Source: Gemmobacter lanyuensis | Lineage (GTDB): Bacteria; Pseudomonadota; Alphaproteobacteria; Rhodobacterales; Rhodobacteraceae | Length of the DNA: 64,000 nt | Direction: 5' to 3' | Assembly (NCBI RefSeq): GCF_014652355.1 | Contig: NZ_BMYQ01000017.1 | Span: forward strand, 401 to 64,400 | Shown: in pieces, positions 8,379 through 39,337 of the stretch | How the letters are laid out: the number at the start of each line of letters is the position of its first letter | How positions within the stretch are numbered: the stretch's first letter is position 1 | Program-made: the position numbers and the translations under genes | Notes under the pieces: model-generated | What the model was told of the DNA's origin: nothing | The model's input: only the letters and a program-made list of their open reading frames with translations | Database searches by the model: none

Positions 8379-9881
8379 TCAGAGATCCTCGCGTCCGCCG
8401 TCGCCCAGACGCAGGCCGCAATCGACCCGGTCAAAGCGACCGCCACCCAGATGAACCCAGTCCTTGCCAACCGAAGCCGCGAGGAATTCATCCCCGGCCC
8501 CGCGGGCCAGTTCGGCCTGCGGATGGTGCGGCAGAACCAGCATGCGTGCCAGGATCAGATAAGCAACAAAACCACAGGGAAAACCGATGACGAAGGCATA
8601 TTGCGACCACATCGCCGCAAGCCCGCCCGCGATGACCCAGGCCAGCATCCCGGCCACGTTCACGCCGCCGGTATACCGGTATTGGCCCTGCGGATTGAAC
8701 AGTTCCGGCACATTCACCTTGCGGCCACGGATCACATAGTAATCCGCCACCATGATGCCGCCGATGGCCGACAGGAACGCGCCATAATAGCCGAGGAACA
8801 CAAAGAGGTTATCGAGGATCTCCCAAGGGAAGCAGAGTGTGCCGACAACCCCCGCCAGCGCGACGCCGGTCTTGTAGCTGACCGACCGCGGCGCGAGGTT
8901 GATGAAGGTCAGCGCCGCCGGGATCAGGTTGGCCGAATTGTTGGTGGACCATTGCGCGAGAACCACCAGTGCCAGCAGCACCACCAGCACAAGGCCCTGC
9001 GCATCGGCCTGGATCACCTCGATCGGGTTCCAGTTGCCGGTGGCAATGAATGAGACAGCCCCGATGCCCGCGATCATGGCCTGCGTCACCGGCAGCGCCA
9101 CCAGCTGCGCCGCAAAGATATTGCGGTTGCGCTGGAAGAAGCCGCGTTCATGCGTGCGGGTTTTGACAAAGCGGGTCAGGTTCGGGATGTCGATGGCCAT
9201 GGTGGACCAGAAGCCCATATTGGCGATGAACAGCACCAGCAGTGACATCTGCCCCTCGGCCCGGAAGGTCCAGATGTTCAGCCCCTTGGTCTGGGCGATG
9301 CCATCGAGCGAAAAATACATCCAGACCGAAATCGCGATGATCGCCGGGGCAGCCAGCGCGGCCAGCCGTTCGACCGACTTGATCCCCAGCATGGTATTGC
9401 CGATCTGCATCGCGCCGAAGGCCAGGTACCAGACGAACCAGTTGGAAAATCCGAAGAAATATTCCCCGATCCCGTTCAGCGCCAGCGCCCCCAGATAGGT
9501 CTGGATGCCGAACCACATTGCCGCCACGACCCCGCGTGACACGGCGGGAAGGTGGGTGCCGTAGATGCCGAAGGGCGCGCGCAGATAAACGGCAAAAGAC
9601 AGCCCGTGTTCGGTGCCGATATCGGCCGTCAGGATCATGAAGGCGCCAATGGCGAGGTTGGCCAGAAAGATGGTCAGGATGACGGTTGCCAGCGAAAAGC
9701 CCCCGCCGATGCCGGTGGCGCCCAGTGAATAGGTGGCGATGATCACGGCGATGCCCACCCAGATCCAGGCATAGCCCAGCCAGCCGATCGGACGCTGGCT
9801 GGCCCTTGTGGGCAGGATGCTGTCTTCGATCAGGGCGGTGCGGGCGCCGGCCCTCTCGCCGGTCTGTTCGATCACGGTCAT
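8379..9881 (-). CDS. NCS1-family nucleobase/hydantoin:cation symporter
   Basis: 500 residues, about 12 membrane segments. Family features include GWLGYAWIWVGIAV near TM1, RAPFGIYG, and WSTNNSANLIPAALTF in the second half. NCS1 members (CodB, PucI, Mhp1) move cytosine, allantoin or hydantoins with Na+ or H+. As last gene of an operon with N-carbamoylsarcosine amidase and HyuA/HyuB, the likely substrate is N-methylhydantoin, creatinine or a related hydantoin; this is inferred from context. It lies 111 bases downstream of hyuB, with a hairpin between them. Confidence 0.85.
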   Translation of the reverse strand: MTVIEQTGERAGARTALIEDSILPTRASQRPIGWLGYAWIWVGIAVIIATYSLGATGIGGGFSLATVILTIFLANLAIGAFMILTADIGTEHGLSFAVYLRAPFGIYGTHLPAVSRGVVAAMWFGIQTYLGALALNGIGEYFFGFSNWFVWYLAFGAMQIGNTMLGIKSVERLAALAAPAIIAISVWMYFSLDGIAQTKGLNIWTFRAEGQMSLLVLFIANMGFWSTMAIDIPNLTRFVKTRTHERGFFQRNRNIFAAQLVALPVTQAMIAGIGAVSFIATGNWNPIEVIQADAQGLVLVVLLALVVLAQWSTNNSANLIPAALTFINLAPRSVSYKTGVALAGVVGTLCFPWEILDNLFVFLGYYGAFLSAIGGIMVADYYVIRGRKVNVPELFNPQGQYRYTGGVNVAGMLAWVIAGGLAAMWSQYAFVIGFPCGFVAYLILARMLVLPHHPQAELARGAGDEFLAASVGKDWVHLGGGRFDRVDCGLRLGDGGREDL

Positions 9882-30438: not shown

Positions 30439-31200
30439 TCAATCCTCGCCTTCATTCACGATGTGCAGCAGGCGACCGCAGGCCTTGCAATGCACCGCAT
30501 CCTGTTCATGACGGTTGAGGCCACAGCCGGGGCATTCGAATTCGACCTTGCGGGGACGGAACAGCACCTGCACCAGACGCAGAAACAGCGAAACGCCGAA
30601 AATCATGATCAGCACAGAGATCAGCTTGCCCGCCGATCCGTTCAGGGTGACGTCGCCAAAGCCCGTCGTTGTCAGCGTGGTGACAGTGAAATAAAGCGCG
30701 TCGACATAGTTCTGGATCTTGTCATTGGTCTGGTGCTGCGTCTCATAGACCAGCGCCGTCATCACAAAGACGAAAACTGCAAGATTGGTGACGGCGACGA
30801 TGGTCTGTTCATTCCGACGAAAGAACGCGAAATCCTGTCGCAGGCGCGAAAGTAACCGATAGGACCGAAGCAGCCGCAGCATGCGCGCGACACGCAGGAA
30901 GGCCAGCCCCTCACCCGCCAGGGGCGCAAGCAGAGAGGCGATCACCACCAGATCGGCCACCCCCGCAGGATGGAGCAGTTCCCCAAGGCGGTTCCGGCTG
31001 ATCCAAAGCCGCGCGGTGAAATCTGCCACGATTGCCAGTCCGATCACCGCATCTGCAATCTCGACCGCAAGCCCGTGATGGGTGAAGGATGACCCGACCA
31101 AGAACAGGATGGTCGTGATATCGAATATCAGCAGGGCATAGCGGAAGCGCACGCCGCGCGGGGTCTCCCCTTCATAAAGCTCGATCAGCCGCTCTTTCAT
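30439..31200 (-). CDS. Voltage-sensor potassium channel with C-terminal zinc ribbon
   Basis: 253 residues. S1-S4 (about 20-125) include an arginine-rich S4, FLRVARMLRLLRSYRLLSRLRQ. The pore loop contains TTTGFGDVT, the K+-filter form TxGFGD, between S5 and S6. The last about 35 residues form CPGC...CKAC, a rubredoxin-like zinc ribbon. It should be a K+-selective inner-membrane channel whose gating could depend on voltage and the cytoplasmic zinc-binding tail. The start at 31200 is preceded by GGAGGCAGC; the longer upstream frame lacks membrane character. Confidence 0.85.
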   Translation of the reverse strand: MKERLIELYEGETPRGVRFRYALLIFDITTILFLVGSSFTHHGLAVEIADAVIGLAIVADFTARLWISRNRLGELLHPAGVADLVVIASLLAPLAGEGLAFLRVARMLRLLRSYRLLSRLRQDFAFFRRNEQTIVAVTNLAVFVFVMTALVYETQHQTNDKIQNYVDALYFTVTTLTTTGFGDVTLNGSAGKLISVLIMIFGVSLFLRLVQVLFRPRKVEFECPGCGLNRHEQDAVHCKACGRLLHIVNEGED

Positions 31201-31312
31201 GCTGCCTCCGCAGATGTATAGCCTGCACCATAAATGGCCACACCGGCGCTGCAACGCGGATTTGATCGCATACAGGGGCCACCGGATGGGCGGCCCCCGA
31301 TCGACCAATGCC

Positions 31313-31927
31313 TCAGGCGGCTTCGCCCAGCAGGCCCTCGGCGCGCATTGCGGCCACCACGGCGGGGCGTGCGGCGACGCGGGCGCGCCAGGCGTTTAGA
31401 TACGGGAAAGGCGACAGGTCATGGCCGATATAGGCCGACCAGTTGGTCACCGTGAAAAGATAGGCGTCGGCGGGCGAATATTCGTCGCCAAGGACCCAGT
31501 CACGCCCATCTGCCAGCCGCGCTTCGACCAGTGCCAGACGCGCATTCAGCAGGGCGACCTGCGCGTCGCGTGCCTCGCCCGAAATCCCGCGGAAAAAGGG
31601 CACATAGGATTGATGCAGCTCGGTCGAGACGAAGTTCAGCATCTCTTGCAGGCGGGCGCGGGCCAGCGTGCCTTGAGCGGGCAGCACGCCCGGCGTCAGG
31701 TGATCTACGACATATTGCATGATCGCCACGCCCTCGGTCAGCACTTCGCCGCTTTCAAGCTGAAGCGCAGGCACCGCGGCACGGGGGGTGATGGTGCTGT
31801 AATCGGCGCCGGTTTCGGTGGTCTTGCTGCGCAGATCTGCACGTTCGATTGCAAAGGCCGAGCCGGTTTCGGCCAGGGTAATGTGACAGGCCAGCGAACA
31901 GGCTCCGGGCGAGTAGAAAAGCTTCAT
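31313..31927 (-). CDS. Glutathione S-transferase (beta class-like)
   Basis: 204 residues. Thioredoxin-like N-terminus MKLFYSPGACSLACHITLAE has the Cys10 region typical of bacterial beta GSTs, followed by AVPALQLESGEVLTEGVAIMQYV, the cis-Pro and SNAIL-equivalent glutathione sites. The alpha-helical C-domain ends with WVLGDEYSPADAYLFTV. Soluble, conjugates or reduces electrophiles with glutathione. No operon partner. Confidence 0.9.
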   Translation of the reverse strand: MKLFYSPGACSLACHITLAETGSAFAIERADLRSKTTETGADYSTITPRAAVPALQLESGEVLTEGVAIMQYVVDHLTPGVLPAQGTLARARLQEMLNFVSTELHQSYVPFFRGISGEARDAQVALLNARLALVEARLADGRDWVLGDEYSPADAYLFTVTNWSAYIGHDLSPFPYLNAWRARVAARPAVVAAMRAEGLLGEAA

Positions 31928-32147
31928 GACATCTCCGAAGAAGGACAGCGGATCAGGTCCGCACATGCGGCGCGAAGCTAACATCTGCGCCGCGATTGTC
32001 AGCCGGCACCAACCGCGCATCCCCGCGCAGAAGCTGTGCGTCGCTGCGCGGGTGAAAGCTGGCGGCCTTTGCCTCTCGCGGGCTTCCAGCCATAAAATCA
32101 GCTGGATACACCCGAACCACGCCGGATCTGCCGAAGGTCGGCGGGCG

Positions 32148-33098
32148 TCAGGCCGTTTCGGTTTCGGAAAAGTGGCCCGTCCCCGTCACTGTTCCGTCGC
32201 GCCGGATGAAAAGCGCGCTCAGCCCCTGTGCCTCGGCCAATACCCGGCCGCGATCCGGCCCAAAAACCATCAGCGCGGTCGCCATGGCGTCGGCCATCAT
32301 GCAGCTCTGCGCCATGACTGTGACAGAAGCCGGGGCCTCGAGCAGCGGGGCCTGGGTCAACGGGTTGATCGTATGGGACAGACGCGTCCCGCGCACCTCG
32401 ACAAAGTGGCGATAGTCGCCCGAGGTGGCAACAGCCCCATCTTCCAGCATCAGGATGGAATGGCTGCCGCGCCGGTGCCCGGCATCAGGAGCATCAATCC
32501 CGACACACCAGGGGCTGTCGTCAGCCCGCCGTCCCAGGGCGCGAACCTCACCGTCAATCGAACAGAGTGCCCGCGTAAGGCCATGTCCAAGCGCGGTTTC
32601 CGCCAGTCGATCGACACCATAGCCTTTGGCAATCCCGGACAGGTCCAATGTCAGGGGCGCCGCTTTGCGGGCCAGGCCTGCCGCCGGATTAAGCGTCAGC
32701 GCATCGGCGGCACGCACCGGCGCGGCGGCACTGGCCTGACGAATGGCCGCAAGGTTTATGGCATCCGGTCCGAACCCCCAGGCGCGCACCGCCGCGCCGA
32801 CATTCATCTCGAAGGCCTGTCCGCTCAGGGCGCTGACTGCGAGGCCAGCCTCAAGCACGGTCATCAAGGGCGCGGGCAGGGGATGCCATTCATCGCAGGG
32901 TGCTGCATTGAAGCGCATGAGGGCGCTTTGCCTGTTCCAAGTGGACATCTGCTGATCAACCTCACCCACCGCGGCCTGAAATGCGGCTGTCAGGCTGTGG
33001 CGCTCTTCAGCCGCCAGCGGGGTGTCAAGCCGGACTTGCCAGAAGGTCCCCATCGTTCTGCCGGACAGGGTGAAGGCGTCAATAGGTGTCTTCGGCAT
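32148..33098 (-). CDS. apbE: FAD:protein FMN transferase (ApbE family)
   Basis: 316 residues. Family motifs: GRTMGTFWQV at the N-terminus, LDLSGIAKGYGVDRLAE, CSIDGEVRALG, VATSGDYRHF, and SHTINPLTQAP with a Mg/FAD-binding Asp in MMADAMATALMV. ApbE attaches FMN to Thr/Ser of target proteins, usually outside the cytoplasm. This protein has no signal peptide or lipobox, so its compartment is unclear. The start overlaps the upstream PepSY-reductase gene by 20 bases. The probable target is the DUF2271 protein in the same operon. Confidence 0.88.
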   Translation of the reverse strand: MPKTPIDAFTLSGRTMGTFWQVRLDTPLAAEERHSLTAAFQAAVGEVDQQMSTWNRQSALMRFNAAPCDEWHPLPAPLMTVLEAGLAVSALSGQAFEMNVGAAVRAWGFGPDAINLAAIRQASAAAPVRAADALTLNPAAGLARKAAPLTLDLSGIAKGYGVDRLAETALGHGLTRALCSIDGEVRALGRRADDSPWCVGIDAPDAGHRRGSHSILMLEDGAVATSGDYRHFVEVRGTRLSHTINPLTQAPLLEAPASVTVMAQSCMMADAMATALMVFGPDRGRVLAEAQGLSALFIRRDGTVTGTGHFSETETA

Positions 33099-35286
33099 AG
33101 CGCCCTCCTGCCCGGAGCTGATCGGGACAAAGCCCGAGAGGTGCAAGGATCTCGGCCAGTGTTTCACGAACGCCGGTTGCCATGTCGCGGCCGCCGCACA
33201 CCATGATCCGCGCACCCTGTCCGACCAGATGGCGGACGCGGTCGGCATCGGTACGCAGGCGGTCCTGCACATGCTGGCGCGCTGCCGTGCGCGAAAATGC
33301 CGTGTTCAGCGATGCGAGGTGGCCCTGGCTGGACCAGCCCTCAAGCGCATCCGCATAAAGGAAATCCGCCTGCGGATGCCGCGCACCGAACCAAAGATGG
33401 ATGGGACGCTTGCCCCTGTTGGCCCGAATGAAGCCTGCAAGAGGCCCAATGCCTGTTCCGGCGCCGATCAGAAGAAGCGGCGCTTTGCTGCGGTCAGGGC
33501 GAAAGCCGGGATTCGGTTTGATGAAGGCCCGTACCATTTGGCCCGGTTCCAGATCCATCAGCTGACCTGAACAAAGGCCCCCCGACTGTTTTTTCACCAC
33601 GATTTCGACAAACCCATCGGCAGTTCCCGAAGCAAGCGAATAGAACCGCGGGATTGCGCTGCCCACCGGCAGGATGCCAAGAAGGTCACCCGCGTGAAAG
33701 CGCGAAAACCCCCGTCCGGCCAGTCGGTCCCGCAGTGAAACCTGCGGCAGGGCGAAGGTCAGGATTGCGGTTGGGGCTTGCAGCGCCTCGCCATAATCCT
33801 GGCGCGACACAAGCCGCAGCGGGGTGCTGCGCGGCATTTCGGGCTGGTGGAGGATGTCGAGCGGATAGCCGATCACCTGTCCCAGATCGCGCGACCAGCG
33901 GGCAAAGGCCTGCGCGGATTGCCGGTCGATCCGTTCCAGCGGCAAGAGCATCGACCAACCTGCCTGACGGGCCGCATGATCCAGCCGCTCGGCAAAGGCA
34001 CAGAAGGCCGGAAAGCTGCGATCGCCAAAGCCCAGAATGGCCATTTTGGCGCGCGGGTGGGGTGGCGTTGCCGCCAGCCGTGCGTCGAGGCCGCGGGCAG
34101 CGACAGGGGCATCGCCATTGCCCCAGGTGGCGGCAAGGACAAGCACCTGTTTTGCGGCCGCATATCGGTCTGGCGCATAGGCGGCAAGTGGGGCGAGATG
34201 AACGCTGCCGCCGACTTCTTGCAACGCAAGGCCGAGTGCGCGGGCAAATCCAAGGGTGCTGCCGCTTTCGCTGGCGACAAGAAGGATGGTTTCCGCATGT
34301 TCGGCGTGAACCATACCGGGCAGGGACAGACGGGCCTTGCGACCCTTGAGCCAGACCTGAATTCCTGTAATCGCCAGTGCCGGAATGGACAGCGTCAGCA
34401 GGCCGAGGATCAATCCCCAAAGGGCTGCCCCCTCACCCGTATGCATCAGGTAGATCCACTCGCCGGCCCGTGTCCAGGGACCTGACGCCTGCCAGGCCAG
34501 CAGGGTACCGGTCCCTTGATCGACATAGCCCATCCCGGCGGTGGTGGTCAGGGTGAAGACATCCGTCGTGTCCCCAGCATAGGGAAAGGTCAGGTCCCGC
34601 AGCGCCGTTACGGGAACTGCGGCCAAGGCGGACATATCGCCCGGCGCAAGTCCAACCAGACCGCTGGTTTCGGCGGGCAGGGCAGGGCTCGCCTCGTCGA
34701 CGGGCAAGAGCTCAAAGGTTGCCGCCGTCATCCACAGCGCCGTTCCCGAGGACAAGACCAGCGACACGACCGCCACACGCGCCAACTCTCCATGCCATCG
34801 TCCGGCAGTGGGTCCCCGCATGCGCGAGAACCACAAGGACCATCCGCCCTGTCGCTGTGCAATCAGCGCCGCCCCGGTCAGGGCAACCACCAGAAGCGCC
34901 AAGGCGGCCGCCGCCGTGATCCAGCGCCCCAAATCCTGCAGAAACAGGGCGCGGTGCAGGTCGGTCAGCCACCCCTGAAGCGCGGATGGATCGGCATTTC
35001 CTGTCGCAAGGCCGGTGGCCGGGTCGATCACCGCCGCGCCGGGGGTGTTGCCATCGAACCAGTACGCCGTGATCTTGCCCGATGGTGCCCGACGGATCTG
35101 TTCGACACCGGGGTAGGCCGCGATCACCTTGCCCGCGAGATCCGCGACCGTCTGCCCCGCCACAGGGGCAGGGGCGGTGGTCCTTTCCACCGCCGGGAAA
35201 ACCGACAGGATCGTGCCGCTGACCGCCAGCACGAGCAGAAGAACAGTGGCCAGAAGCGCGGGCCAGCGATGGAATAGCCGGATCAT
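33079..35286 (-). CDS. PepSY-TM / flavodoxin / FNR fusion membrane reductase
   Basis: 735 residues. The N-terminal half has four membrane segments (about 8-28, 118-142, 170-190, 285-312) with PepSY segments (LAGKVIAAYPGVEQIRRA). A flavodoxin domain follows (LLVASESGSTLGFA, AATWGNGDAP), then an FNR domain with FAD site RFYSLASG and NAD(P)H site LLIGAGTGIGPLAGF and CGGRDMATGV. This is a CPR/SiR-like cytoplasmic reductase joined to a membrane anchor, suited to move electrons from NAD(P)H through FAD and FMN across the inner membrane. Similar PepSY reductases reduce ferric chelates or feed flavinylated periplasmic carriers. No haem is evident. Confidence 0.85.
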   Translation of the reverse strand: MIRLFHRWPALLATVLLLVLAVSGTILSVFPAVERTTAPAPVAGQTVADLAGKVIAAYPGVEQIRRAPSGKITAYWFDGNTPGAAVIDPATGLATGNADPSALQGWLTDLHRALFLQDLGRWITAAAALALLVVALTGAALIAQRQGGWSLWFSRMRGPTAGRWHGELARVAVVSLVLSSGTALWMTAATFELLPVDEASPALPAETSGLVGLAPGDMSALAAVPVTALRDLTFPYAGDTTDVFTLTTTAGMGYVDQGTGTLLAWQASGPWTRAGEWIYLMHTGEGAALWGLILGLLTLSIPALAITGIQVWLKGRKARLSLPGMVHAEHAETILLVASESGSTLGFARALGLALQEVGGSVHLAPLAAYAPDRYAAAKQVLVLAATWGNGDAPVAARGLDARLAATPPHPRAKMAILGFGDRSFPAFCAFAERLDHAARQAGWSMLLPLERIDRQSAQAFARWSRDLGQVIGYPLDILHQPEMPRSTPLRLVSRQDYGEALQAPTAILTFALPQVSLRDRLAGRGFSRFHAGDLLGILPVGSAIPRFYSLASGTADGFVEIVVKKQSGGLCSGQLMDLEPGQMVRAFIKPNPGFRPDRSKAPLLLIGAGTGIGPLAGFIRANRGKRPIHLWFGARHPQADFLYADALEGWSSQGHLASLNTAFSRTAARQHVQDRLRTDADRVRHLVGQGARIMVCGGRDMATGVRETLAEILAPLGLCPDQLRAGGRYAEDTY

Positions 35287-35297
35287 GCGGGGACCTG

Positions 35298-35771
35298 TCA
35301 GAAGGTGTAGGTAAGATCGGCGATGTAGCGACGTCCCCGAACCGGCTGTCCGGCACCTTCGCTGGTCAGGGGCATGGCAATCTCATTGGGGCTGTCGCGC
35401 ATATCCTCGACCGCCGCGTCGACATGCAGGGTATAGCCTGCATCGAACAGCGCATCCGCAAGGTCCATCGTCAGTTCAAGATTGCGCCCGGCGCCGACGC
35501 TGGCGCCGGTGATGCCGTCCACCTGCGACACATCCCCGCCCGTGAACTTTGCCCAGTCAGAGAGATGCTTGTAATACTTGGATTTTCCACCTGCCATCCA
35601 CAGGCTACCCGCGTAGGCGCCCGATGGATCGGTGACATAGAGTGCGAGATATGCGCCTTGTCCGCCATATTGTGACAGATTGACCGTCAGGGTGACGGGG
35701 CGGGCAAGGGCCAATCCGGGCGCAATCAGGGCTGTGGTCAGGGCCAAGGTGGCGATTATGCGTTTCATCAC
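35298..35771 (-). CDS. DUF2271 periplasmic protein with a flavinylation-like motif
   Basis: 157 residues with a Sec signal ending LALA (residues 1-23), followed by a DUF2271 beta-rich domain. Residues 85-91 read DGITGAS, resembling the Dxx(S/T)GA(T/S) motif that ApbE modifies with FMN in NqrC/RnfG-type proteins; Ser91 would carry the flavin. The gene sits 11 bases before the PepSY reductase, with apbE downstream. A periplasmic flavin carrier receiving electrons from the reductase is the most economical reading, but unproven. Confidence 0.75.
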   Translation of the reverse strand: MMKRIIATLALTTALIAPGLALARPVTLTVNLSQYGGQGAYLALYVTDPSGAYAGSLWMAGGKSKYYKHLSDWAKFTGGDVSQVDGITGASVGAGRNLELTMDLADALFDAGYTLHVDAAVEDMRDSPNEIAMPLTSEGAGQPVRGRRYIADLTYTF

Positions 35772-35780
35772 GCGCTCCTG

Positions 35781-36164
<384 letters not shown>

Positions 36165-36190
36165 AATCTTCTCCAGTTCGTTTGTCGGGA

Positions 36191-36484
36191 TCAGTCGTCA
36201 TCCGCGTCGCTGTCCTCATCCTCGAACTCCATTTCGAGGATGGTCAGCGTCGCAGGATCCAGCTTCACTTCGATCGGCCGCCCGCTGGCATCCCGACCGT
36301 TCACCTCATAACAGCCGTCGTCCAGCCGGATGCGGCCCACGTGCCACCCCTTGGCGATGGCAAATTGCTCGACAGCGTCGCGCGGCTGCCAATCGGCCAT
36401 CGGCACGCTGCAATCGTCATCCGCACGGGCGGGTGCGGCGGAAAGCAGGCAGGCAATGAGAAGGCTTGTTGACATGCGGACCAT
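36191..36484 (-). CDS. Small secreted PepSY-domain protein with acidic tail
   Basis: 97 residues from ATG 36484 (CGGAG upstream at suitable spacing). A Sec signal (MSTSLLIACLLSAAPARA) precedes a single PepSY-like domain: WQPRDAVEQFAIAKGWHVGRIRLDDGCYEVNGRDASGRPIEVKLDPAT. The last 13 residues are nearly all Asp/Glu. First gene of the reductase operon, divergent from the OmpR-type regulator. Soluble PepSY proteins often accompany PepSY-TM reductases. The acidic tail shared with the next gene suggests cation binding. Confidence 0.75.
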   Translation of the reverse strand: MVRMSTSLLIACLLSAAPARADDDCSVPMADWQPRDAVEQFAIAKGWHVGRIRLDDGCYEVNGRDASGRPIEVKLDPATLTILEMEFEDEDSDADDD

Positions 36485-36566
36485 GCGTGACACTCCGTCG
36501 TGCTTCTGATGTTGTCTTTCTGCGCGGCAAAGCTGACGCCTGCCTGAAGCGGTGCCAGAATCTGGT

Positions 36567-36583
36567 TCAGGTCCGCGTCAGGT
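36567..36583. promoter_or_regulatory. Direct repeat operator of the OmpR-type regulator
   Basis: TCAGGT-N5-TCAGGT (period 11 bases) lies in the 145-base divergent region between the PepSY operon and the response regulator gene, 47 bases before the regulator start. Direct repeats of this geometry are typical OmpR/PmrA-family sites. Confidence 0.55.
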
Positions 36584-36629: not shown

Positions 36630-37289
36630 ATGCGGATTCTGCTGGTCGAAGATGATCGTGTCATCGCAGCTGCGGTGCGCGAACAGGCCGAGGGCGAGGG
36701 CCATTCGGTCGATCACGCCGCCCGGCTGGACACTGCGGAAGATGCACTTGCGACGGCACATTTCGATCTGATCCTGCTGGATCTGATGCTGCCTGACGGG
36801 CGCGGGTTGCCGTTTCTGCGCCGACTGCGGGCCAAGGGCAATACGACCCCGGTCATCATCATGACGGCCCTCGACCAGATTTCAGACCGGATCGACGGAT
36901 TGAATGCCGGTGCCGATGATTATCTGGTCAAGCCCTTTGATCTGAGCGAACTTTCCGCCCGCATCGGGGCGGTCTCGCGCCGCTATGCCGGGAACCCAAA
37001 TCCGCGCGTGACCTTGGGGGATTTGTCCATAGATATCGCGGCGCGCAGTCTGACGCGGGCGGGCAAGTCGGTGCCGCTGACGGCGCGGGAATGGGTTTTG
37101 CTTGAGGCCTTTCTGCAAAAACCCGGTCAACTTTTGTCGAAAGCTGTGCTCGAAGAGCGGCTTTATTCCTTTGACGCCGAGGTCGAAAGCAACACGATCG
37201 AAGTGCACATCAGCCGCCTGCGAAAAAAGCTCGGCGCGGATGTGATCGCGACGGAGCGGGGCCTCGGCTACCGGTTGGTCCGGCCGTGA
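36630..37289 (+). CDS. OmpR-family response regulator of the PepSY-reductase locus
   Basis: 219 residues: receiver with Asp51 (LILLDLMLPDG), MTALDQIS and VKPFDLSELSARI, then an OmpR-type winged helix ending SNTIEVHISRLRKKLGADVIATERGLGYRL. Closest in type to QseB/PmrA/TctD regulators. ATG 36630 has GGACGGTCCGGA upstream. It overlaps the kinase gene by GTGA and is divergent from the PepSY/reductase/apbE operon, which it probably controls through the TCAGGT repeat. Confidence 0.9.
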   Translation: MRILLVEDDRVIAAAVREQAEGEGHSVDHAARLDTAEDALATAHFDLILLDLMLPDGRGLPFLRRLRAKGNTTPVIIMTALDQISDRIDGLNAGADDYLVKPFDLSELSARIGAVSRRYAGNPNPRVTLGDLSIDIAARSLTRAGKSVPLTAREWVLLEAFLQKPGQLLSKAVLEERLYSFDAEVESNTIEVHISRLRKKLGADVIATERGLGYRLVRP

Positions 37290-38626
37290 AGGGGAACTCC
37301 ATCCGGCTGCGCTCTGCCTTCCTGCTGTCGGGGATCGTGACCCTGCTCTGGCTTGGCACTGCCATGGCCACGCTGCGCCTTGTCTCCGAAGAGATGGCCG
37401 AGGTCTTCGACTCTGCCCTGCAGGAAACGGGTCAGCGCATCCTGCAGCTGGCTGTGGTCGATGTGCTGAACCGCGATGAAGAGGGAGTGAACCGCCGAGT
37501 GACCGGGCTCGCGGAACATGAGGAGCATTTCACTTATGTGGTCCGCGATCCTGAGGGGCGTCTTTTGTTGACCTCGCACCGCGCGCGGCCGGAAGATTTT
37601 CCACTTTTTCCCGACTCCGGCTTTCATGATACCGGCGACATGCGCTTTTACCAGGAAATGGCGGTCCGCGGCACCGTGATCCTGACCATTGCCGAGCCGC
37701 TGTCGCATCGTCGCGAAGCGGTAGTCAACATGGCGCTTTCGCTCGCTCTGCCCCTGCTGGTCACGGTCCCCCTCAGCCTGATCGCGATTTTCTATGGTCT
37801 CGGTTTCGGTCTGCGCCCGTTGAACCGGCTGCGCGACCAGCTGGCCCAACGGGGCGCGACCCGGCTTGCCCCGCTTGTCCGTACCGGTGTTCCGTCAGAG
37901 CTTGGTCCCATTGTAGATACCATCAACGATCTTCTCATGCGGCTGGAGCGGGCCTTTGCCGCCGAACGCAGCTTTGCAGCCAACGCCGCGCATGAACTGC
38001 GCACACCCCTGGCAGGGGCTTTGGGGCAACTGCAGCGTTTGCGGCATCAGTCGCAAGACCCCGAAACCCGAAGACGTGCTGATGAGGTGGAACATACGCT
38101 GCGACGCCTGATCCGCCTCTCGGAAAAGCTGATGCAGTTGGCCCGTGCCGAAGGTGCGCGTCTGTTGACAGATGCAGCCGCCGATATCCGGCCCGTTCTG
38201 GATATGGTCGTTCGGGATTTTGCCCATGCCGCCAGTGCTCGAGAGATACGTCTTGACCTGCCAGACCAGCCGGTGCTGGCGCGCGTCGATCTGGATGCCA
38301 TTGCCATTGTGGCGCGCAACCTGATCGAGAACGCCATCCGCCATGGCGATGGCGGTACCATTTCCGTAAGGCTGGATGCAGACGCGACCCTGACGGTCGA
38401 GAACAGCGGCCCGACCGTGCCCGCCGATCGGATGTTGTCGTTGACCGACAGGTTCGTGCGCGGAAACAGTGTCGACGATGGCAGCGGGCTTGGCCTTGCC
38501 ATCGTCCAGACCATCGCCGGTCGCATCGGCTCGCAGTTGGTTCTGCATTCGCCTGTCCCCGGCCGAGCCGATGGTTTCCAGGCCTCTCTCTCCTTCCTCC
38601 CCCAAATCCCCCAACTGACGGACTGA
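37286..38626 (+). CDS. Sensor histidine kinase of the PepSY-reductase locus
   Basis: 446 residues: TM1 (about 8-28), a periplasmic sensor of about 125 residues, TM2 (about 150-175), HAMP-like linker, HisKA with His236 (NAAHELRTPLAG), and HATPase_c with NLIENAIRHG and GSGLGLAIV. The QseC/TctE-like layout suits detection of metal ions or small organic acids. Start GTG 37286 is coupled to the response regulator. The VIT-family transporter begins 3 bases after it, so the three genes form one operon. Confidence 0.88.
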   Translation: MKGNSIRLRSAFLLSGIVTLLWLGTAMATLRLVSEEMAEVFDSALQETGQRILQLAVVDVLNRDEEGVNRRVTGLAEHEEHFTYVVRDPEGRLLLTSHRARPEDFPLFPDSGFHDTGDMRFYQEMAVRGTVILTIAEPLSHRREAVVNMALSLALPLLVTVPLSLIAIFYGLGFGLRPLNRLRDQLAQRGATRLAPLVRTGVPSELGPIVDTINDLLMRLERAFAAERSFAANAAHELRTPLAGALGQLQRLRHQSQDPETRRRADEVEHTLRRLIRLSEKLMQLARAEGARLLTDAAADIRPVLDMVVRDFAHAASAREIRLDLPDQPVLARVDLDAIAIVARNLIENAIRHGDGGTISVRLDADATLTVENSGPTVPADRMLSLTDRFVRGNSVDDGSGLGLAIVQTIAGRIGSQLVLHSPVPGRADGFQASLSFLPQIPQLTD

Positions 38627-38629
38627 ACC

Positions 38630-39337
38630 ATGAGCTTGCCCTACGAATCCGCCCATGAGGAACTGCATTATCTGGATCGCGCGGGCTGGCTCCGCGCCGC
38701 GGTGCTGGGCGCGAATGACGGGATTGTTTCCGTCTCATCCCTCATTGTGGGGGTGGCCGCCGCCGATCCCAGCCGCATCTCCATCCTGGTCGCGGGGGCA
38801 GCTGGCCTCGCTGCCGGGGCCATGTCGATGGCCGCGGGGGAATATGTCTCTGTCAGCTCACAATCCGATGTGGAACGCGCCGATATCGCCCGGGAACGCC
38901 AGGCGTTGATCGACACACCCTTGGCCGAAGAACGCGAGCTGGCCTCAATCTACGAATCGCGTGGGCTGTCACCGCAGACCGCTGCGCTGGTCGCGCGGGA
39001 ACTGACCGAAAAAGATGCGCTTGCGGCCCATGTCCGGGATGAACTGGGTCTTTCCGAGGTCCATGCCGCGAACCCGTTGCAGGCGGCGCTGGCCTCGGGG
39101 CTGACCTTCACAGCTGCTGCCGCGGTTCCGCTCGCCGCCGCGGCCCTGGCGCCCGATGGCATGATCGTCCCGACCGTGGTGATCGCCACCCTGGGTAGCC
39201 TTGCGGGCCTTGGTGCACTGGGCGCCCATGCGGGCGGGGCGCCGAAACTGCGGGCGACATCCCGCGTTCTGTTTTGGGGAGCGGCCGCCATGGCCATTAC
39301 CGCAGGGGTCGGGCGGCTTTTCGGCGTTTCGGTCTAG
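38630..39337 (+). CDS. VIT1/CCC1-family Fe(II)/Mn(II) transporter
   Basis: 235 residues with about five membrane segments. The family hallmark WLRAAVLGANDGIVSVSSLIVGVAAA and AAGAMSMAAGEYVSVSSQSDVERADIARER, an amphipathic cytoplasmic metal-binding segment, are present. VIT/CCC1 proteins export Fe(II) or Mn(II) from the cytoplasm by H+ antiport. There is no ferritin-like N-domain, unlike MbfA. Being in the kinase operon suggests the two-component system responds to iron, manganese or their redox state. Confidence 0.9.
   Translation: MSLPYESAHEELHYLDRAGWLRAAVLGANDGIVSVSSLIVGVAAADPSRISILVAGAAGLAAGAMSMAAGEYVSVSSQSDVERADIARERQALIDTPLAEERELASIYESRGLSPQTAALVARELTEKDALAAHVRDELGLSEVHAANPLQAALASGLTFTAAAAVPLAAAALAPDGMIVPTVVIATLGSLAGLGALGAHAGGAPKLRATSRVLFWGAAAMAITAGVGRLFGVSV

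What the first reader, a model, noticed from the sequence alone, without database searches (positions are those of the whole stretch)
32148..36484. Putative flavinylation-based transmembrane electron relay
A PepSY-TM/flavodoxin/FNR reductase, ApbE and a secreted DUF2271 protein with a DGITGAS motif (ApbE-site-like) form one operon with a small PepSY protein and an Asp-rich protein. Electrons from NAD(P)H could reach a covalently bound FMN in the periplasm and reduce metals or quinones. Related flavinylation systems exist, but this combination and control are not ones I recognise as characterised.
Basis: partly seen in the sequence, partly recalled or inferred. Interest (0 to 1): 0.75.

Follow-up and report, generated by a model that had tools for sequence, protein, structure and literature searches.

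The report
Metal-linked flavin electron relay cassette
These genes look like a known kind of bacterial wire that carries electrons from inside the cell to a flavin protein outside the inner membrane, probably to reduce metals such as iron; what looks new is its private switch and a small helper protein whose ending is kept while its body is swapped.

Summary
In detail: PepSY_2, Asp-rich protein, DUF2271 (GITGAS), PepSY_TM-flavodoxin-FNR reductase and ApbE form one minus-strand operon. The unit is larger than reported: a divergent two-component pair and a VIT1 transporter (36630-39337) belong to it. The core is the published "PepSY-like" flavinylation system (Meheust 2021, PMC8238504, passages). 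Four features go beyond the passages I read. (1) The protein upstream of DUF2271 has either an Asp-rich or a PepSY_2 body, but both end in the same C-terminal tail (76 of 80 relatives); two near-identical loci differ chiefly in that body. (2) A symmetric operator, CTGA-N7-CTGA...TCAG-N7-TCAG, lies between the divergent genes (48 of 56 distinct regions) and occurs in 42 of 47 reductase-bearing but 2 of 245 other Rhodobacterales genomes. (3) The ApbE shows no signal peptide in 77 of 77 relatives examined, although its presumed substrate has one. (4) Related cassettes lie on conjugative plasmids. Most likely an extracytoplasmic metal (probably ferric) reductase under its own switch; flavinylation, acceptor, tail docking and regulator binding are inferred. 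New variant of a known kind.

The parts
32148..33098 (-). ApbE-family FMN transferase without a visible signal peptide
   Evidence: Pfam ApbE E=1.6e-70; N-terminus
33079..35286 (-). PepSY_TM-flavodoxin-FNR reductase, 735 residues
   Evidence: Pfam, PDB profile search, alignment A2
34345..35274 (-). PepSY_TM half with invariant His 6, 111, 165, 282 (expected heme ligands)
   Evidence: Pfam residues 5-314; invariant in 24 and 33 aligned sequences; FoxB fold match
33166..34281 (-). Cytosolic diflavin half: flavodoxin (residues 336-457) and FAD/NAD-binding (542-707)
   Evidence: Pfam, CPR/CysJ-type PDB matches
35298..35771 (-). DUF2271 protein with Sec-like leader, presumed ApbE substrate
   Evidence: Pfam E=2.7e-33; GITGAS in 80 of 80 relatives
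35499..35501 (-). Ser codon of GITGAS, presumed flavinylation site (Ser90 from ATG, Ser91 from GTG)
   Evidence: Alignment A4; motif as in PMC8238504
35781..36164 (-). Asp-rich secreted protein, carrier of the conserved tail
   Evidence: Translation; relatives
35784..35867 (-). Codons of the conserved C-terminal tail (28 residues)
   Evidence: Tail alignment A1; profile counts
36191..36493 (-). Small secreted PepSY_2 protein, without tail
   Evidence: Pfam E=1.7e-24
36533..36581 (.). Double operator: CTGA-N7-CTGA (36533-36547) and TCAG-N7-TCAG (36567-36581)
36630..37289 (+). OmpR-type response regulator (ATG start chosen by eye; longest frame starts at 36552)
   Evidence: Pfam Response_reg and Trans_reg_C; best NCBIfam match PmrA, below cut-off
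37286..38626 (+). Sensor histidine kinase
   Evidence: Pfam HisKA, HATPase_c; best NCBIfam match QseC, below cut-off
38630..39337 (+). VIT1-family metal transporter, three bases after the kinase gene
   Evidence: Pfam VIT1 E=2.6e-62; VIT1 in 42 of 80 relatives

Best explanation
A self-contained extracytoplasmic metal-reductase cassette under its own two-component switch. Inferred path: NAD(P)H reduces the flavins of the cytosolic diflavin half; electrons cross the membrane through two b hemes held by His 6, 111, 165 and 282; they pass to an FMN that ApbE has attached to Ser90/91 of the exported DUF2271 protein; and from there to a metal ion, most likely Fe(III), held near the relay by an acidic partner. 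That partner (Asp-rich here, PepSY_2 elsewhere) is proposed to dock on DUF2271 or on the outer face of the reductase through its conserved C-terminal tail. The divergent kinase and regulator, perhaps gated by the first PepSY_2 protein, sense a metal or envelope signal and act through the double operator. VIT1 handles the reduced metal. Shown here: gene set, domains, fold match, invariant residues, tail conservation, body exchange, operator and its linkage to the cassette. Inferred: flavinylation, heme binding, electron flow, docking, metal identity, regulator binding.
For: Domains; diflavin PDB matches; FoxB fold match; four invariant His as in the heme sites described for PepSY_TM proteins (PMC11334425; PMC13038864; passages). 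GITGAS in 80 of 80 DUF2271. One DUF2271 was shown to be flavinylated, and PepSY-like clusters are tied to iron by Fur and VIT1 (PMC8238504, passages); in Caulobacter a related locus is Fur-regulated and insertions in it lower fitness in EDTA (PMC12004947, passages). VIT1 in 42 of 80 loci; P-type ATPase and VIT next to plasmid copies. Tail: 76 of 80 loci, 37 of 38 tail genomes have DUF2271 and reductase, body exchange. Operator.
Against: No experiment on this locus. The ApbE has no visible signal peptide, so the flavin step on an exported protein is unexplained. The FoxB superposition is loose (rmsd 9.0). Three of 80 loci have relay without tail (L007, L008, L064) and 10 of 47 reductase genomes miss the tail threshold, so the tail is not essential everywhere. 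VIT1 was not found in 38 of 80 loci, though some contigs are short. No Fur-type site was looked for. The kinase sensor shows no clear metal motif by eye.
Confidence: 0.6

Rival explanations
1. The same relay, but the acceptor is copper, another metal or a metal-siderophore complex rather than loosely held ferric iron, and the purpose is metal tolerance or enzyme assembly.
For: Another PepSY_TM protein, CrpH, is proposed as a copper reductase (PMC13038864, passages). Plasmid copies sit beside a heavy-metal P-type ATPase.
Against: VIT1 and published Fur links point to iron; no copper gene was identified beside the window operon in the stretch annotated.
Confidence: 0.25
2. The relay feeds electrons to a periplasmic enzyme or cytochrome rather than to a metal.
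For: Some relatives have a cytochrome b561 or a ferric-reductase-like flavoprotein inside the cassette.
Against: The window has neither between its genes, and I saw no acceptor enzyme shared by the loci inspected; the shared accessories are acidic proteins and metal transporters.
Confidence: 0.12
3. The leaderless operon ApbE modifies a cytosolic protein, while DUF2271 is flavinylated by one of the three other, export-signal-bearing ApbEs of the genome, or not at all.
For: No signal peptide in 77 of 77 operon ApbEs; three other ApbEs begin with RR-containing leaders by eye; a known leaderless ApbE serves a cytosolic fumarate reductase (PMC12052999, passages).
Against: ApbE is next to DUF2271 and reductase in 80 of 80 loci and GITGAS is kept in 80 of 80.
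Confidence: 0.2
4. The tail is not a docking element: it is inherited from a common ancestor and kept for protein stability, export or translation of the next gene, and the body exchange is neutral recombination.
For: The tail gene ends about 13-95 bases before DUF2271 in 69 of 76 loci, where translational coupling is plausible.
Against: Selection acts on the protein (pN/pS 0.34); in 7 of 76 loci the tail gene is about 0.8-0.9 kb away; two operator-bearing genomes without reductase have a decayed tail or none.
Confidence: 0.3

Closest known systems
PepSY-like flavinylation system (Meheust et al. 2021, PMC8238504)
   Same: PepSY_TM protein, DUF2271 with [S/T]GA[S/T], ApbE, often a NAD-binding domain, sometimes VIT1
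   Different: No signal peptide on ApbE; acidic or PepSY_2 partner with a conserved tail; own two-component pair and operator; no DUF4198 was recognised in the window cassette
FoxB siderophore reductase (PDB 7abw) and other PepSY_TM reductases
   Same: Fold of the membrane half; four conserved histidines
   Different: Fused to a cytosolic flavodoxin-FNR half and coupled to DUF2271
DbfQRS of Vibrio cholerae and PA2658/PA2659-BqsRS (PMC12714742)
   Same: Small secreted PepSY protein beside a two-component pair
   Different: Here the module controls a reductase operon; contact between PepSY_2 and this kinase is untested
Caulobacter CCNA_03155-03159 (PMC12004947)
   Same: PepSY-family membrane protein, DUF2271 and flavin-dependent reductase in one Fur-linked locus
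   Different: Has DUF4198; the passages read mention no tail and no divergent two-component pair

Membership tests
PepSY-like flavinylation system | PepSY_TM (PF03929) protein encoded in a flavinylation-associated cluster (the paper's operational definition) | tested here: met
   definition in passages
PepSY-like flavinylation system | DUF2271 substrate with [S/T]GA[S/T] motif and ApbE (frequent, not required) | tested here: met
PepSY-like flavinylation system | ApbE with export signal or lipidation (the survey's filter for extracytosolic genes; typical of, not defining for, the PepSY class) | tested here: not met
   No signal peptide by eye in the window and in 77 of 77 relatives; the substrate itself has a leader
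PepSY-like flavinylation system | Covalent FMN on DUF2271 | not testable with these tools
   Needs co-expression and mass spectrometry
FoxB-type PepSY_TM reductase | PepSY_TM fold with two bis-His heme sites | tested here: met
   Foldseek E=1.1e-8 to 7abw; four invariant His; heme itself not tested
FoxB-type PepSY_TM reductase | Ferrisiderophore reduction | not testable with these tools
   -
DbfQRS-like module | Small secreted PepSY protein within four genes of a kinase or regulator | tested here: met
   PepSY_2 at 36493-36191 next to the regulator at 36630
DbfQRS-like module | PepSY protein binds the kinase sensor | not testable with these tools
   No complex prediction available

The most novel reading that the evidence does not exclude
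A modular adaptor system: a C-terminal peptide of about 18-28 residues is a portable plug that fastens interchangeable metal-holding bodies (a PepSY_2 domain or a near-pure Asp run) onto a flavinylated electron relay, so that the relay's substrate can change by swapping the body while the plug is kept; related cassettes, with their own two-component switch, operator and metal transporters, move between genera on conjugative plasmids; and DUF2271 is flavinylated by a cytosolic ApbE before or during export.
Probability: 0.33. Interest if true: 0.78.

Novelty: new variant of a known kind. Interest (0 to 1): 0.57.

Why it matters
How DUF2271 relays meet their substrates, and how they are controlled, is open. 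If the tail is a plug, it names a missing partner and gives a sharp test: one short peptide, two natural bodies, and natural loci that have lost the relay and the intact tail. A leaderless ApbE beside an exported substrate asks directly where flavinylation happens. The operator marks the regulon and so helps to find the inducing signal.

Tried and rejected
A strict pattern found the tail in 66 of 80 loci. Ten more were found with a profile of 18 tails: L034, L039, L040, L075 and six of a looser rhizobial type (L047, L050, L051, L056, L061, L062). One tail of that looser type was itself a row of the profile, and other rows also came from these loci, so the count of 76 is partly circular.

That the Asp-rich protein is mere low-complexity chance was rejected because its tail is conserved and under purifying selection.

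PDB by sequence gave nothing credible for the PepSY_TM half alone (best E 0.57) or for DUF2271 (best E 0.046); a fold search with the DUF2271 model (pLDDT 83.7) had no match at E<=0.001.

A metal motif in the kinase sensor was looked for by eye in 48 sequences; conserved acidic, His and Tyr positions exist, but nothing specific to a metal can be claimed. A guess about the metal carried by the plasmid P-type ATPase was dropped; the literature listing did not settle it.

The operator pattern was read off the same intergenic regions on which it was then counted, so one search is not an independent test; the genome-wide search is. A single box with one mismatch in the window was at chance level (7 found, 4.25 expected); only the double operator is used.

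Rows left out of counts: three of 41 tail hits (G076, G168, G186; E 0.0068-0.0096), cut at E<=1e-5 after seeing the list; three of 80 loci without an ApbE frame of 200 residues (L033, L038, L075); 68 intergenic regions (window included) gave 56 distinct ones; tail selection used 65 loci, 49 distinct tail DNAs, and 60 sampled of 468 cross-type pairs for identities.
Full report
OBSERVATION. Pfam confirms PepSY_2, DUF2271, PepSY_TM + Flavodoxin_1 + NAD_binding_1 (FAD_binding_6 below cut-off) and ApbE; the Asp-rich protein has no family above cut-off. Divergently lie an OmpR-type response regulator, a histidine kinase and, three bases after the kinase, a VIT1-family transporter. The genome (4.03 Mb, 51 contigs) has one DUF2271, four ApbEs and two PepSY_2 genes.

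CONSERVATION. A scan of genome contigs with the reductase gave 272 confirmed relatives, of which the best 80 were kept, 56-71% identical, mostly Rhodobacterales and Hyphomicrobiales by record title. Reductase, DUF2271 and ApbE are together in 80 of 80; response regulator and PepSY_2 in 76; kinase in 74; all of them in 74. The six others end within about 2.2 kb upstream of the reductase frame. VIT1 was found in 42 of 80: on the kinase side, as in the window, in 6 and after ApbE in 36.

ELECTRON PATH. The C-terminal half matches P450 reductase, nitric oxide synthase and sulfite reductase flavoproteins by profile. The N-terminal 330 residues were modelled (33 rows, mean pLDDT 87.6; long helices 2-27, 117-146, 160-190 and 300-317). 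FoxB is the only PDB fold match at E<=0.001 (E=1.1e-8, TM 0.49/0.46, rmsd 9.0, 19% identity). His 6, 111, 165 and 282 are invariant in 24 and in 33 aligned sequences, as expected for the two bis-His hemes described for PepSY_TM proteins (PMC11334425, passages; PMC13038864, passages). GITGAS is in 80 of 80 DUF2271 proteins: [DN]GITGASV in 78, AGITGAS in L007 and L075. Meheust 2021 showed flavinylation of one DUF2271 at the [S/T]GA[S/T] motif and counted 3220 PepSY-like clusters, 2833 with DUF2271, 167 with VIT1, and 1077 PepSY-like genes with a NAD-binding domain (PMC8238504, passages). The relay core is therefore known.

LEADERLESS ApbE. In 77 of 77 relatives examined the ApbE shows no signal peptide. 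In 74 of them an in-frame stop lies 17-26 codons before its TMGT motif (TMGS, SMGT in a few), which leaves no room; in L002, L005 and L039, as in the window, the frame is open further back, but over the end of the reductase gene and without a leader-like stretch. This was judged by eye, not by a predictor. DUF2271 begins with a Sec-like leader. The three other ApbEs of the genome begin with RR-containing, export-like leaders (by eye). A 2025 review says most ApbEs seem to be secreted and cites a cytosolic one that serves a soluble fumarate reductase (PMC12052999, passages). Where this DUF2271 is flavinylated is open.

THE TAIL. The tail-bearing gene upstream of DUF2271 has an Asp-rich or a PepSY_2 body, and both end alike; in the window ...GNPAPAGTVAPPNNNLFTNGTAPAVKSN. 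With a profile of 18 diverse tails, 76 of 80 loci have one: 42 Asp-rich, 33 PepSY_2, and 1 (L075) not matched by either window protein but acidic. L007, L008 and L064 lack it; L033 is cut. None of 13,409 other ORF ends of the same loci reached the 10-bit threshold (best 6.9). In 69 of 76 the tail gene ends roughly 13-95 bases before DUF2271, in 7 roughly 0.8-0.9 kb. Between types, bodies are 19% and tails 74% identical; pN/pS of the tail is 0.34 over 1176 pairs and 0.38 across types. L009 (Salipiger) and L010 (Celeribacter) are 79-100% identical in DNA per 100-base window over about 6.7 kb, except three windows over the body at 34-63%; BLAST pieces stop at 9117 and resume at 9362 of L010, the same for L025 (97.2% before, 83.3% after). 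The body was exchanged and the tail kept. Diverged tails occur on acidic proteins in Methylocella, Xanthobacter and Rhizobium plasmids and on PepSY_2 proteins in Paraburkholderia and Klebsiella michiganensis plasmids.

TAIL AND RELAY GO TOGETHER. In 292 Rhodobacterales genomes, 38 have a tail at E<=1e-5, 49 DUF2271 and 47 the reductase; 37 of the 38 have both. The exception, G087, keeps regulator, kinase, two PepSY_2 genes and a cytochrome b561-like frame between them, but no reductase or DUF2271 was found, and its tail reads NGASGNG. G067 has the operator, no reductase, and a PepSY_2 ending in an Ala-Pro run. A second G048 cassette, in which no reductase was found, has NGHFGHG but keeps the last residues. 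Against this, 10 of the 47 reductase genomes do not reach the tail threshold; three of these have shorter or diverged tail-like ends (G018/L140, G006/L138, G215/L146), and for others no tail was seen. Exact-test p-values overstate the case because genomes are related.

CONTROL. Between the divergent genes lies CTGA-N7-CTGA followed by TCAG-N7-TCAG, start to start 34 or 35 bases in the 40 regions printed. Each box is in 52 and both are in 48 of 56 distinct regions; dinucleotide shuffles gave means of about 0.2 regions per box and never both in 200 rounds; other spacers of 2-15 gave 0-4. In the window the element is 36533-36581. Its exact form occurs at one place in the own genome and in 44 of 292 genomes, with no match of the reversed control in the rows shown. 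It is in 42 of 47 reductase genomes and 2 of 245 others (G067, G087). Many cassettes have a second copy, several of them before the tail-gene/DUF2271 unit; in L158 and L159 a copy lies just before the acidic tail gene. Not every relative has it: none was found in L141, L143, L150, L156 and others. An 11-base repeat period is typical of OmpR-family regulators (recalled). Binding is inferred. In DbfQRS a small PepSY protein acts on the neighbouring kinase (PMC12714742, passages); the first PepSY_2 here may do likewise.

MOBILITY. A cassette of the L010 type is in 59 plasmid records, in 48 with at least 80% of the query in one place; 50 of 59 are typed conjugative, and 38 of 59 are one genus, Pseudosulfitobacter. 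In Celeribacter ethanolicus and Roseovarius indicus plasmids the annotated order is kinase, regulator, PepSY_2, ferredoxin-reductase-family protein (Ferric_reduct by Pfam), tailed PepSY protein, DUF2271, reductase, ApbE, P-type ATPase, VIT. The window's version has only short DUF2271-region DNA matches in 7 plasmid records; nothing here shows that it is on a plasmid.

METAL. Iron is favoured by VIT1, by the Fur links cited by Meheust 2021 and by the Caulobacter locus whose mutants do poorly in EDTA (PMC12004947, passages). Copper is possible (CrpH, PMC13038864, passages).

NOVELTY. Searches of the open-access library for DUF2271 with flavinylation, DUF2271/PepSY/ApbE, PepSY with two-component and reductase terms, BqsR with PepSY, plasmid terms, ApbE localisation terms and two pieces of the tail (one unrelated paper) showed no description of the tail, the body exchange or the operator in the listings and passages seen. 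Most subscription papers are not in that library, and supplements were not read. I rate this a new variant of a known kind.

Noticed in passing
L086, 710-2296 (G000:C7 near 108241): A second PepSY_2 gene of the host, without tail, divergent from a response regulator and followed by a cytochrome b561-like frame; the double operator was not found there.
   Followed up: partly
L155, 4843-11045: Klebsiella michiganensis plasmid cassette with regulator, ferric-reductase-like protein, PepSY_2 with diverged tail, DUF2271, reductase and VIT1, but no ApbE in its gene table, which may be incomplete.
   Followed up: partly
L010, L011, L013, L014, L023, L055: About 15 kb with the cassette is 96-99.6% identical between genera (Celeribacter, Roseovarius, Actibacterium, Tropicibacter, Pseudooceanicola, an uncultured Rhodobacteraceae), which suggests recent transfer.
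   Followed up: partly
L021: A contig titled Enemella evansiae (an actinobacterium, recalled) carries the Rhodobacterales-type cassette at 97% identity; contamination seems likelier than transfer.
   Followed up: no
L176, 4593-5673 (G279:C28): A solitary copy of the double operator before a PepSY_2 and a cytochrome b561-like frame, without a regulator found nearby: a possible second regulon member.
   Followed up: partly
window 30439-31308 and 31313-32020: A putative ion channel (Ion_trans_2) and a glutathione S-transferase-like protein lie beyond ApbE on the same strand; no link to the cassette was seen.
   Followed up: no
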